Assembly: GCA_009909005.1 (NCBI GenBank)
Contig: JAAAOG010000143.1
Coordinates: 1-45,992 of the forward strand
Reading direction: 5' to 3'
DNA from: Alphaproteobacteria bacterium
GTDB taxonomy: Bacteria > Pseudomonadota > Alphaproteobacteria > DSM-16000 > Inquilinaceae
Length of the DNA stretch: 45,992 bases
Below the pieces are notes generated by a model, which worked only from the letters and a program-made list of their open reading frames with translations, searched no databases and was not told the origin of the DNA. The translations under genes were made by a program, and so were the position numbers. Shown piece by piece: positions 25,868-29,499 of the stretch; position 1 is the stretch's first letter; every line of letters starts with the position of its first letter.

Positions 25868-26203
25868 ATGCGCGATGAGTCCTGTGCAAATCTTGCCGAG
25901 CGGCGGCGTGAATCCCGCCTTCCCGTTCTCGTTATGGCCGAGGTCAGGGCCGATGGGCTCTCGGTACTGGCGCGGGTGTACAACATCTCGCCCGGCGGGG
26001 CGCTGCTCAGTCCGGTGGCCGGGCTCAGCTGCGGCATGGCCTGCCAGGTGCGGCTGCCGGGCTATGGCAGCGTGACAGCCCGGGTTGTCCGGACCACGGC
26101 CGACTCGATGGGGATCGCCTTCGACGCCGTCGAGGGGGAAGGGGCGGGCGACCCGGATCAGGTCTTCCACCGTGTCCGCCACGGCCAGATTCGCAGAGGC
26201 TGA
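25868..26203 (+). CDS. PilZ domain protein (probable c-di-GMP receptor)
   Basis: A 111-aa single-domain protein. The PilZ c-di-GMP-binding motifs are visible: ERRRESRLPV (RxxxR) near residue 12 and YNISPGGALL (N/DxSxxG) near residue 40, followed by beta-strand-rich sequence. ATG 25868 is chosen because GAGGAAAG lies about 8 nt upstream. No effector domain is attached, so it probably signals by protein contact. It follows rpe by 95 nt and converges with the nuclease-like gene 26 nt further on. Confidence 0.88.
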   Translation: MRDESCANLAERRRESRLPVLVMAEVRADGLSVLARVYNISPGGALLSPVAGLSCGMACQVRLPGYGSVTARVVRTTADSMGIAFDAVEGEGAGDPDQVFHRVRHGQIRRG

Positions 26204-26229
26204 TGGAGTCGGCCCTGCCGGTCTCCGGA

Positions 26230-27300
26230 TCAGATGCCGGCAAGGTCCTTGAGCGACTGCTCCACCTTCTGATTGGTTTCCTTGTGGTTCAGCGCCTTGT
26301 TGAAGCCGGAGCTGATCACCCGGGCGTTGCTGTAGGCGTTCGAGCCGGCCCCGCTGCGCGCCATGCTGTGATCCACCTCGGCCTGATAGTCGGAGGAGGC
26401 CGGCATCAGATGCCGGACTTTTTCATAAGGCGTCAGGCCGTACATATCGCTGTCCATGTAGCCGCGGTACCGCACGACGTTCATCTTGAGGATGAACATG
26501 GCCTGCTCGTGGGAGAATTTGGTAACGTTGTTGATGCCGCCTGAAAGATGGGGCCCACCAAGCAATTCGTATTCCTTTGGGAAATTGAAATATATGAAAT
26601 CGAGGACCGCATAGGGGCGTGAAAAATAAAAGGCGTCCTTCTGCTTCTTCACGGTGAAATCAATATTCTTGGGATTCAGGCCGCCGACCTGCAACTCCTT
26701 TCTTATTCCCGAAGACTGCGCTTGCAGTTCCACGGACCAATTCGCCTGCTCCATCGCATCCTGGCGCCTTTGCAGCAGAGGGCCCGCCAGATTTATGAAA
26801 TCATCAGGTTTCATGTAGAATGCCGTCGGCGGCGGATGAAGCAGCAGAATATCCCTGGCCAGGCTTTGCGGCAGGGCGCCGCCGCGTTTGGCGGCGACCT
26901 TGATCAGGAACTTGTCCGGGATCGGCGTCTGTTTGTCGGCATAGGAGACCGATATCTCAAGATCGACTGCCCTGCCGTGGTAATTCAAATGTTCTTTGAG
27001 CGGCGTCTCAAACTGCACCTGCCAAGCGCCAGCGGCAGAATTGAAGCCGCCATACATCGGCACGAGGTTGCCCGTGCTCTCCGGGCCACCGAATTGCAGG
27101 CCGATCAGATGCCCGCGCTCGGTATGAAGCGGCCGGTCGTTGACGAGACCGGTCCGGGAATGCAGCGCCAGCGGCTGAACCGAGCCGTCCCGGGGCGTCG
27201 GGTTTTTTGGCAGGATGACGTCGGTCGCCTGCACGCCGACGACGCGCAGACGTGTCTCGGTATTATACTGGTAAAATCCGACAAGCGGCTTGAACTCCAT
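26230..27300 (-). CDS. Putative nuclease with two His-Me-finger-like motifs (RGH...N...E and HNH-like)
   Basis: The 356-aa product from ATG 27300 (GAGAGG 5 nt upstream) has no overall match I recognise. Near the N-terminus, ERGHLIGLQFGG (H64), GNLVPM (N78), FN (N87) and QFE (E98) follow the pattern of DNA/RNA non-specific beta-beta-alpha-metal endonucleases such as Endonuclease_NS_2. The last 50 residues carry a second pattern, AEVDHSMARSGAGSNAYSNA then N334 and K340, which looks like an HNH motif (D310, H311, N325, N334). The middle (110-300) is unassigned. No signal peptide, membrane segment, Rhs repeat or secretion marker is seen. The gene is clearly less GC-rich than its neighbours, suggesting acquisition by transfer. 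Toxin, effector or DNA-processing roles are all possible. Confidence 0.6.
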   Translation of the reverse strand: MEFKPLVGFYQYNTETRLRVVGVQATDVILPKNPTPRDGSVQPLALHSRTGLVNDRPLHTERGHLIGLQFGGPESTGNLVPMYGGFNSAAGAWQVQFETPLKEHLNYHGRAVDLEISVSYADKQTPIPDKFLIKVAAKRGGALPQSLARDILLLHPPPTAFYMKPDDFINLAGPLLQRRQDAMEQANWSVELQAQSSGIRKELQVGGLNPKNIDFTVKKQKDAFYFSRPYAVLDFIYFNFPKEYELLGGPHLSGGINNVTKFSHEQAMFILKMNVVRYRGYMDSDMYGLTPYEKVRHLMPASSDYQAEVDHSMARSGAGSNAYSNARVISSGFNKALNHKETNQKVEQSLKDLAGI

Positions 27301-27342
27301 CCCGGCCTCTCTCGGCAGCACCGGCCAAATTTTAACTGTACT

Positions 27343-27374: not shown

Positions 27375-27520
27375 CCGTCTTTCTTTAGGGGAAAATCTGC
27401 AGATCGCGATCTCAGCCCCATACCGGAAAAATCTGCAATTCATGGTTGATCGTGCGGCTGACCAAACTGCCTGATTTCGTGTCTCGGCATTCCCGGCGGT
27501 CCGGTTACGGCCGCGGCGCC

Positions 27521-27540
27521 GGGGGTCCGGACGGGCCCCC
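27521..27540 (-). terminator. GC-rich hairpin downstream of the TonB receptor gene
   Basis: GGGGGTCC (27521-27528) pairs with GGGCCCCC (27533-27540) with one G-T pair and a 4-nt loop, about 55 nt past the receptor stop. No T-run follows on the minus strand, so it is only a weak terminator candidate. Confidence 0.3.
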
Positions 27541-27594
27541 CGTGCGGCCGGTCCGGCCAACCATCCGCGGCGATCTGGGGGGCTGCCCCGGCTT

Positions 27595-29499
27595 TTAGAA
27601 GGTCAGCGACAGGCCCCCGAACCCGGAGATGCCGGCGGTGCCGAAGCCCAGCGCTTCCTGATAGTCCTCGTCGAACAGGTTCTCGACCCGGGCGAAGGCG
27701 ATGAGATTGTCGGTCAGACTGTAGGAGGCCGTCACGTTGACAACGGTATAGGGATCGAGCCGGTCGTCATTGTCCGAGTCATTGAACTGTTCGCCGACAT
27801 AGCGGATCTCGCCGACCAGGGACAGGTCCTCGGTCGGCTGGATGTCGATGATCGAGGTCAGGCTGTGCTGCGGCCGGCGGCGCAGCTCCAGCCCGGTGGT
27901 GCGGTCCTCGGTCTCCAGGAAGGTGTAGCTGACGTCCCAGAGCAGCCAGTCGACCGGTGCCGCCGAGACCGCCAGCTCGATGCCCCAGGTCCGGGCCTCG
28001 GCGACATTCTCGAAGCGCGAGCCGCTGAACTGGATGAGGTTCTCGAAGTCATTGAAGAACCCGGTGGCCGACAGGGTCAGGCGATTGTCGAACAGTGCCT
28101 GCTCGATGCCGGCATCGACGCCCAGGCTGGTCTCGGTCTCCAGGTCGGGATTTGGTTCGGTGACGAAGGTGAAGCCGCCGAAATCGATGGTGAAGCTGTC
28201 GAACAGTTGGAAGATGGTCGGCGCCCGGGCGGCGGTGCCGACGCTGGCGCGCAGGGTGGTGCCGGTCTCGGGCATCGCATAGGCCCCGGTCACCCGCCAG
28301 GTCGGCTCGGTGCCGCCGGCCTCGAAATCGTCGACCCGGCCGCTGGCGGTCAGCACCAGCCCGTCCAGCGGTTCGACCCGCACCAGGCCGAAGCCGAAGA
28401 CGGTGGTCAGCGCTTCGTCGAAGCGCTGGCCCGGGTCCGGTCCGCCGACATCCTCGCCCTCGCCCTGTTCCTCTTCCACGCCGGCCCCGCCGATCAGCGT
28501 CCAGCGCTCGCCGAGCGCATATTCGGCGCGCAGATCGCCCTCGAAGCGCCGGCCGGTGAACAGGCTGGTGCGCCCGGGCTCGACCACCTCGCGGTCGGTG
28601 TTGGAGGCGGAAAAACTGGCGCGGGTGATGAGCGCTCCGTCCAGGCCGGCATGCTCCAGCGAGAACCGGCCATAGCCGAGGTCGAGGGTGGTCTCGCCGA
28701 TCCGCTCCTCCGCCGCAGCGATGTCGAGCTCGGCATTGTTGCGGATATAGCCGCCGGCGAGCTCGGCGCTCAGCGTGGGCGTGAGGTCGGCCGTCGCCCG
28801 GCCGGTCAGGTTGACCGCCTGGGTGCTGTCGTCCTCGGTGAAGCCGAAATCCTCATCGCGGCGGGAAAAGCCGTTGGTGGTCAGCCCGGCGGCGTTCAGG
28901 CCATAGGCGAGCCGGCCGAAAGACCCCGCGATGGTACCGGAGCCGCGGATGGTGTCGAAGGAGCCATATTCGCCGGTCAGCCGGCCGGAGGGCGGGCCCT
29001 CGCCGACGCCGGTGGTCAGGCTGATCACGCCGCCCATGGCGTCGCTGCCATAGAGCGCGCTCTGCGGGCCGCGCAGCACCTCGATGCGCTCGATCCCGGT
29101 GGTCAGCAGGCCGGCGAAGTTGAAATCGCCGGCGGCGCTGGACGGATCGTTCAGCTCGACCCCGTCGAGCCGCACCTGCACCTGGCCGCTTTCGGCGCCG
29201 CGCAGGCGGACCACCGACTCACTGCCGAAGCCGCCGCTTTGGGTGGCGGTCAGGCCGGGGACGCGGCGCAGCACGTCAATGGTCGAGTATTGGCGTGAGC
29301 GCCGGATTTCCGCCTCGCCGATCACCGTCACGGCGCTGCCGGCCTCGGTCGCCGGCTCCGGCCGGCCGGTCGGCGTGACGACGATCGGGTCGAGGGTGAA
29401 GCCGGGGCCGGCGACCGGCTGGGCGACGGCGGAGGCGGTCACGGAAAGGGCGGCGGCGAAGGCGGCGGCCGCGGTGGTCCGGGCGGTTTGAGAGGACAT
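27595..29499 (-). CDS. btuB: TonB-dependent outer-membrane receptor, BtuB-like (vitamin B12)
   Basis: A 22-strand beta-barrel with plug domain that takes up corrinoids with TonB energy. The 634-aa product has a signal peptide (cleavage after about A26), a TonB box LDPIVVTPT (about 36-44), the plug motifs STIDVLRRVPGLTA, VVRLRGAESGQVQVRLDGVELND and ERIEVLRGPQSALYGSDAMGGVI, and a C-terminal barrel strand ending in Phe (GGLSLTF). The size and plug are typical of BtuB. The B12 assignment rests on similarity and on the surrounding cobalamin genes. It is divergent from cbiB. I found no cobalamin riboswitch directly upstream. Confidence 0.85.
   Translation of the reverse strand: MSSQTARTTAAAAFAAALSVTASAVAQPVAGPGFTLDPIVVTPTGRPEPATEAGSAVTVIGEAEIRRSRQYSTIDVLRRVPGLTATQSGGFGSESVVRLRGAESGQVQVRLDGVELNDPSSAAGDFNFAGLLTTGIERIEVLRGPQSALYGSDAMGGVISLTTGVGEGPPSGRLTGEYGSFDTIRGSGTIAGSFGRLAYGLNAAGLTTNGFSRRDEDFGFTEDDSTQAVNLTGRATADLTPTLSAELAGGYIRNNAELDIAAAEERIGETTLDLGYGRFSLEHAGLDGALITRASFSASNTDREVVEPGRTSLFTGRRFEGDLRAEYALGERWTLIGGAGVEEEQGEGEDVGGPDPGQRFDEALTTVFGFGLVRVEPLDGLVLTASGRVDDFEAGGTEPTWRVTGAYAMPETGTTLRASVGTAARAPTIFQLFDSFTIDFGGFTFVTEPNPDLETETSLGVDAGIEQALFDNRLTLSATGFFNDFENLIQFSGSRFENVAEARTWGIELAVSAAPVDWLLWDVSYTFLETEDRTTGLELRRRPQHSLTSIIDIQPTEDLSLVGEIRYVGEQFNDSDNDDRLDPYTVVNVTASYSLTDNLIAFARVENLFDEDYQEALGFGTAGISGFGGLSLTF

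What the first reader, a model, noticed from the sequence alone, without database searches (positions are those of the whole stretch)
26230..27300. Protein with two separate nuclease-like motifs in a less GC-rich island
Near the N-terminus RGH (H64), N78, N87 and E98 follow the DNA/RNA non-specific endonuclease pattern. The last 50 residues show DH (310-311), N325, N334 and K340 in an HNH-like arrangement. The middle 190 residues match nothing I know. Base composition differs visibly from all neighbours and no cognate immunity or secretion gene is adjacent. It could be a novel toxin, effector or DNA-processing enzyme with two His-Me-finger centres, or one active and one decayed centre.
Basis: partly seen in the sequence, partly recalled or inferred. 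Interest (0 to 1): 0.6.

Follow-up and report, generated by a model that had tools for sequence, protein, structure and literature searches.

The report
Two-nuclease type VI effector-like protein
This lone gene encodes a 356-residue protein with two different, apparently intact nucleic-acid-cutting centres, and some of its scattered relatives sit directly behind the loading genes of a bacterial injection machine, so it is most likely an injected weapon with two blades.

Summary
Residues 10-133 are Pfam Endonuclea_NS_2 (46 bits, cut-off 27). Residues about 262-340 are a DHNNK-like HNH domain: no Pfam hit alone, but 98.6% by profile comparison. Six relatives share the order nuclease, middle, HNH: three Polyangium and three MAGs (Acetobacteraceae, Acidobacteria, Nitrospinaceae). 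H64, N78, N87, E98 and N334, none demanded by the search, are kept in 7 of 7; K340 is not. Neither centre looks decayed.

In two Polyangium loci the gene follows a DUF4123 adaptor gene behind VgrG, the usual place of a type VI secretion (T6SS) cargo effector. All 7 carrier genomes have TssB (background 56/318 and 78/280). No immunity gene was found beside any copy. The window copy is solitary and GC-poor.

Best reading: a T6SS cargo effector with two His-Me-finger nucleases in tandem; in the window an orphan, probably horizontally acquired gene. Delivery and activity are inferred. Both domain types are known; I found no description of the fusion. New variant of a known kind.

The parts
26230..27300 (-). 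whole gene, 356 aa, two-nuclease protein P0001
   Evidence: ORF and translation; single match in its genome
26902..27273 (-). first nuclease domain, residues 10-133, NucA / Endonuclea_NS_2 type; H64, N78, N87, E98
   Evidence: Pfam PF13930, 46.2 bits, cut-off 27; residues kept in 7 of 7
26536..26880 (-). middle region, residues 141-255, no Pfam match; carries the RPYAVLDF stretch with A231 and D234 invariant
   Evidence: no family hit; conserved in the family
26281..26517 (-). second nuclease domain, residues 262-340, HNH of DHNNK-like type; D310, H311, N321, N325, N334
   Evidence: profile-profile 98.6% with HNH C-termini; predicted beta-beta-alpha at 307-338; N334 kept in 7 of 7 without being in the search pattern
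27306..27313 (-). possible ribosome-binding site GAGAGAGG, 5 nt before the ATG
   Evidence: read from the sequence; inference

Best explanation
[quoted passage not shown] In the Polyangium relatives it would be loaded by the DUF4123 adaptor onto the VgrG-PAAR spike and injected into another cell, where it degrades DNA and/or RNA. In the window genome the gene lies alone, away from any spike gene seen, and was probably acquired horizontally; it would have to use the genome's own T6SS in trans. Shown: domain make-up, conservation, genomic linkage in relatives, T6SS genes in the carrier genomes. Inferred: loading, delivery, nuclease activity, target.
For: N domain: Pfam NS_2. C domain: HNH by profile-profile comparison and a predicted beta-beta-alpha; one relative, Polyangium L024, passes both Pfam cut-offs in a single protein (NS_2 44.2/27, HNH_4 22.6/22). 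Same three-part order in 6 further loci. Nine catalytic positions identical in 7 of 7, five of them not demanded by the search pattern. In L067 and L069 the gene directly follows an FHA-DUF4123 gene (E 9e-33 and 1e-31) with VgrG upstream; L067 also has PAAR (E 3e-19); L069 has convergent C70-peptidase-like and DUF2169 (E 7e-43) genes downstream. DUF4123 and DUF2169 are named T6SS adaptors in PMC10433429 (passages). TssB in 7 of 7 carrier genomes, against 56 of 318 in the window's class and 78 of 280 in the class of the acidobacterial carrier (both counts include one carrier). Window genome: TssA, TssB, two TssC, TssE, TssF, TssG on one contig. [quoted passage not shown]
Against: The window copy is not linked to any T6SS gene; for the Acetobacteraceae, Acidobacteria and Nitrospinaceae copies one neighbour each was scanned and none is a T6SS gene, the rest seen only as ORF layouts. 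So direct linkage rests on one genus, whose loci are not independent. No immunity gene was seen beside any copy, unusual for an antibacterial nuclease effector. The TssB comparison covers few independent lineages, and members of the window's own family often have TssB (3 of the 4 family members listed). No eCIS_core protein in the window genome, but 4 of 7 carriers have one, so another injection system is not excluded there. The N-terminal fold could not be modelled; Foldseek has no match below E 0.001. The Nitrospinaceae MAG copy has an in-frame stop in the first domain.
Confidence: 0.68

Rival explanations
1. The window copy is an orphan relic: a once-delivered effector gene, acquired by horizontal transfer, that is no longer delivered or expressed here.
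For: Solitary, GC-poor, no adaptor, spike or immunity neighbour; no match in the other 16 genomes of its family examined; the Nitrospinaceae copy carries an in-frame stop.
Against: The frame is open over 356 codons with all nine catalytic positions intact, a plausible ribosome-binding site is present, and the genome has a T6SS cluster.
Confidence: 0.17
2. A cytosolic house or defence nuclease: a stand-alone chromosomal enzyme that processes or destroys incoming DNA, not a delivered effector; the Polyangium linkage would be a local recruitment.
For: Four of five lineages have the gene outside any T6SS locus seen; no immunity gene; classical HNH and NucA clades also occur outside toxins (PMC3482391 section 21).
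Against: No PADLOC match up to E 1; T6SS in 7 of 7 carriers; DUF4123 directly upstream in L067 and L069; DHNNK clade largely restricted to toxin systems.
Confidence: 0.12
3. An effector of another injection or secretion route (for example an extracellular contractile injection system), with T6SS presence coincidental outside Polyangium.
For: eCIS_core proteins in 4 of 7 carrier genomes; two HNH-type relatives of the C-terminal domain, L033 and L038, carry eCIS_core.
Against: No eCIS_core match in the window genome, the acidobacterial or the Nitrospinaceae carrier; no eCIS_core in the family proteins scanned (L024, L027, L042).
Confidence: 0.05

Closest known systems
Tox-NucA / Endonuclea_NS_2 toxins such as EsaD (EssD) of Staphylococcus aureus and RhsA of Dickeya dadantii (named in PMC9990079, passages)
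   Same: First domain: Pfam match and H, N, N, E residues; EsaD is the best PDB sequence match of the family profile (E 8e-7) and the first Foldseek match (probability 0.90, E 0.04)
   Different: In those toxins the domain is a C-terminal tip behind a trafficking region (recalled); here it is N-terminal in a short protein and followed by a second nuclease; no immunity gene found adjacent
Tox-DHNNK and related HNH toxin tips (PMC3482391, passages and section 21); here seen as HNH C-termini of other proteins, L032, L035, L039-L041, L043
   Same: DH, N, N, N in register; profile-profile 98.6%
   Different: The K is not kept in register in this family, and the domain is fused behind a NucA domain and a middle region
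DUF4123-dependent T6SS cargo effectors (adaptors Tec/Tap; PMC10433429, passages)
   Same: Gene order VgrG, (PAAR), DUF4123, effector in Polyangium L067 and L069
   Different: Two nuclease domains; no adjacent immunity gene found; window copy unlinked
TseTBg, a T6SS effector with dual DNase and RNase activity (mentioned in PMC11148199, passage)
   Same: Idea of two nucleic-acid targets in one effector
   Different: There one Tox-REase-5 domain has both activities; here two separate His-Me-finger domains

Membership tests
Endonuclea_NS_2 / Tox-NucA | Profile score above the curated cut-off | tested here: met
   46.2 bits, cut-off 27; 6 of 7 members of alignment A2 match up to E 1
Endonuclea_NS_2 / Tox-NucA | Residues GH, N, N, E (PMC3482391) | tested here: met
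   G63-H64, N78, N87, E98 in P0001; H, N, N, E in 7 of 7, G63 in 4 of 7 (F in the Polyangium copies)
Endonuclea_NS_2 / Tox-NucA | beta-beta-alpha-metal fold at H64 | tested here: inconclusive
   residues 1-92 below pLDDT 50; Foldseek's first match is EsaD but E 0.04
HNH / Tox-DHNNK | DH, N, N, N residues (PMC3482391) | tested here: met
   D310, H311, N321, N325, N334 in 7 of 7; the first four were demanded by the search pattern, N334 was not
HNH / Tox-DHNNK | K residue of the motif | tested here: inconclusive
   K340 in P0001; 0 of 6 relatives have K in that column, some have K at other nearby positions
[quoted passage not shown]
   Predicted strand 307-311, strand 326-330, helix 331-338, block pLDDT 71-87; a prediction, with VIA-align Z only 4.3 and 4.2 to McrA HNH enzymes
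HNH / Tox-DHNNK | Pfam HNH score above cut-off | tested here: inconclusive
   P0001: no hit; L024 22.6 bits, cut-off 22, L027 21.6, just under
T6SS cargo effector | T6SS-dependent delivery (the defining feature) | not testable with these tools
   needs secretion or competition assays
T6SS cargo effector | T6SS genes in the same genome | tested here: met
   TssB in 7 of 7; TssA, B, C, E, F, G in the window genome
T6SS cargo effector | Encoded beside adaptor and spike genes (typical, not defining) | tested here: inconclusive
   Met in Polyangium L067 and L069; not met in the window nor, with one neighbour scanned each, in the other three copies
Antibacterial effector-immunity pair | Cognate immunity gene adjacent | tested here: not met
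   No candidate beside the window gene; no neighbour frame shared across lineages at E 1e-4. A fast-diverging or distant immunity gene could be missed
Anti-phage defence proteins in PADLOC | Match to a PADLOC model | tested here: not met
   0 families up to E 1

The most novel reading that the evidence does not exclude
A widely scattered family of T6SS effectors with two nucleases that is kept without any adjacent immunity gene: the protein is latent in its producer and switched on only after delivery, or is aimed at eukaryotic cells, and the two centres divide the work between substrates, for example DNA and RNA or the two DNA strands.
Probability: 0.3. Interest if true: 0.7.

Novelty: new variant of a known kind. 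Interest (0 to 1): 0.5.

Why it matters
Toxic nucleases of bacteria usually come singly and with a dedicated antidote (recalled). A conserved pair of nucleases of different subfamilies in one short effector, with no antidote gene found next to it in five lineages, makes two questions directly testable: whether the two centres act on different substrates or back each other up, and how a cell survives making such a protein. The DUF4123-linked Polyangium copies give a handle on delivery.

Tried and rejected
Close relatives of the single sequence: exact-peptide scan of genome contigs (0 relatives); viral contigs with the C-terminus (0); plasmids (0); phages (1 record, NucA part only, E 6e-3); 398 genomes of the phylum (2 at E 1e-3: itself and one NucA-only stretch); 385 of the class (10 at E 0.1: itself and 9 weak partial matches); 17 of the family and of the order (itself only). 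With alignments: viral contigs (1 NucA-only; 0; 1 on the same contig; 0 with the HNH alignment). With the family profile: 282 genomes of the Polyangium phylum (2: the known carrier and one NucA-only) and 250 of the acidobacterial class (3: the known carrier and two NucA-only); there at most 7 or 8 candidates per genome were scored. So the full-length family appears rare.

The HNH pattern scan of viral contigs gave 3 false matches; an NS_2 pattern scan gave 0. The HNH pattern scan of genome contigs gave 33 loci: 19 I read as HNH-type, 14 I dropped as a metallo-hydrolase-like motif, by eye from the HxDVDH-type context (recalled, not by a call).

Single-sequence folding gave pLDDT 32 and was discarded. 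NCBIfam gave IscB at E 0.13 and PHROGs two weak hits on the C-terminus, one endonuclease VII; read only as hints of HNH. A phmmer search of the last 77 residues against the PDB gave one irrelevant match at E 1.6. L074 (NucA-only) misaligned onto the HNH part and was dropped before folding. A signal of homing or mobility was looked for only as repeats and tRNAs: no tRNA, only short repeats. The joint chance of 0.009 for TssB in three lineages assumes independence and uses the window's class as background for the Acetobacteraceae MAG; no background was measured for the Polyangium and Nitrospinaceae groups. Searches for a printed NucA-HNH fusion or two-nuclease effector: (open-licence library only); the passages and the one section read describe none, though PMC3482391 mentions a very long toxin with multiple toxin domains.

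Full report
WHAT IS THERE. The gene runs from 27300 down to 26230 on the minus strand and encodes 356 aa. It has one match, itself, in its 4.2 Mb, 230-contig genome. GC is 0.575 and GC3 0.745, z -3.1 and -3.4 against ten other window genes. On the lower side lie a convergent PilZ gene, ribulose-phosphate epimerase, transketolase and phosphoglucomutase; on the upper side a TonB receptor and cobalamin genes. No tRNA was found in the window.

FIRST CENTRE. Residues 10-133 match Pfam PF13930 (46.2 bits, cut-off 27). The best solved-structure match of the family profile is the nuclease EssD/EsaD (E 8e-7). H64, N78, N87 and E98 correspond to the GH, N, N, E residues printed for Tox-NucA in PMC3482391 (passages).

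SECOND CENTRE. P0001's last 74 or 200 residues give no Pfam hit. A degenerate DNA pattern for VDHx7GxNx(Y/F)xNAx(V/I/M) in genome contigs gave 33 loci, of which I read 19 as HNH proteins. The C-termini of six of these (alignment A4) match Pfam HNH_4, HNH_5 and HNH in 6 of 6 members up to E 1, match Cas9 HNH chains (best E 4e-5), and align with the family profile at 98.6% probability. D310, H311, N321, N325, N334 and K340 in P0001 read DH, N, N, N, K as printed for Tox-DHNNK (passages), but the K is not kept in register in relatives.

THE FAMILY. Six of the 19 loci share the whole order with P0001: L024, L036 and L048 (Polyangium), L042 (Acetobacteraceae MAG), L027 (Acidobacteria MAG) and L047 (Nitrospinaceae MAG); identity to P0001 is 23-31%. 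A profile search of the seven carrier genomes gives one full-length match in each (E 2e-103 to 8e-156; the members were in the profile, so this shows extent, not independent homology), and six further partial matches in three of them. On a seven-row alignment H64, N78, N87, E98 and N334, which the pattern did not demand, are identical in 7 of 7; so are D310, H311, N321 and N325, which it did demand; A231, D234 and N274 are also invariant. Between the three Polyangium copies dN/dS (NG86) is 0.13-0.40 in the N part, 0.10-0.15 in the middle and 0.08-0.16 in the C part. The Nitrospinaceae MAG copy has one in-frame stop in the first domain: a pseudogene or an assembly error.

STRUCTURE. With a 19-row alignment AF2 reached mean pLDDT 55.7, pTM 0.53; the HNH part shows strand 307-311, strand 326-330, helix 331-338 (block pLDDT 71-87); residues 1-92 are below 50. 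Foldseek's first two matches are EsaD chains (best probability 0.90, E 0.04), followed by NucA and EndA nucleases among unrelated chains; none is below E 0.001. VIA-align 2 puts ScoMcrA (Z 4.3), EcoKMcrA (4.2) and a Cas8-HNH chain (3.5) at the top, with an unrelated chain also at 3.5. This agrees with two His-Me fingers but proves neither.

THE T6SS LINK. In Polyangium L067 the order on one strand is VgrG, PAAR (E 3e-19), FHA-DUF4123 (E 9e-33), then the effector; if it begins at the MRFTGDQ methionine, its ATG overlaps the DUF4123 stop. L069 has VgrG, FHA-DUF4123 and effector in the same order, followed on the other strand by a C70-peptidase-like and a DUF2169 gene. PAAR was scanned in L067 only; L068 was seen only as an ORF layout. 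DUF4123 and DUF2169 are described as T6SS adaptors in PMC10433429 (passages). TssB is present in 7 of 7 carrier genomes, against 56 of 318 and 78 of 280 (some of them weak) in two reference classes. The window genome has TssA, TssB, two TssC, TssE, TssF and TssG on one contig; no VgrG was among the ORFs scanned there, and I could not search the rest. eCIS_core, the mark of another injection system, is in 4 of 7 carriers but not in the window genome.

NO IMMUNITY GENE. Beside the window gene no coding-like frame of 45 aa or more other than PilZ and TonB lies adjacent, save a 50-codon frame at 27446-27598 (which left out frames with a weak codon-position signal). Among all stop-to-stop frames of 45 aa or more within 2.5 kb of the seven copies, none resembles another across lineages at E 1e-4; Polyangium-Polyangium pairs were left out of that listing. 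Immunity proteins diverge fast, so a lineage-specific one could be missed.

MECHANISM. Most likely a T6SS cargo effector that is loaded by a DUF4123 adaptor where one is present, injected, and then cuts nucleic acid at two centres. Each general base is a histidine (H64, H311) with nearby Asn, Glu or Asp residues positioning a metal; this is known chemistry of the superfamily, inferred here. Why two centres, and why no antidote, is open; latency in the producer or a eukaryotic target would fit. The window copy looks like an orphan, horizontally acquired member.

NOVELTY. Both domains and the delivery route are known kinds. The conserved NucA-middle-HNH fusion, in five lineages and without an adjacent immunity gene found, did not turn up in the searches. 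I rate it a new variant of a known kind, interest 0.5.

Noticed in passing
L038:5-1723 (minus), Methylococcaceae MAG: A protein with an eCIS_core domain (E 5e-8) and two successive HNH motifs (pattern at residues 390 and 502 of the frame): another doubling of HNH nucleases, in an injection-system-type protein.
   Followed up: partly
L076:5924-7813 (minus), window genome contig C103: One 629-aa frame matches TssB (47.7 bits) and then TssC (206.7 bits), a fused sheath-like protein beside a VIT/VWA protein and apart from the main T6SS contig; weak TssB matches in similarly long frames occur in other carrier and acidobacterial-class genomes.
   Followed up: partly
L075:9124-12316 (plus), window genome contig C29: Two TssC (VipB) genes in a row behind TssB in the T6SS cluster.
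   Followed up: no
L021 (Lachnospiraceae MAG), L030 (Clostridiaceae), L049 (unnamed MAG): Proteins of about 300-330 aa, rich in cysteine by eye, with an HNH-type motif close to this one and no Pfam match up to E 0.01.
   Followed up: no
L013:2458-5316, Streptococcus phage YS771: Two genes close together, annotated 'YeeE protein' and 'type IV secretion protein Rhs', both give NucA-type matches to the first domain.
   Followed up: no
window 26203-26544 (plus): A 113-codon frame begins at the last base of the PilZ frame and runs antisense over the HNH part; probably spurious.
   Followed up: no
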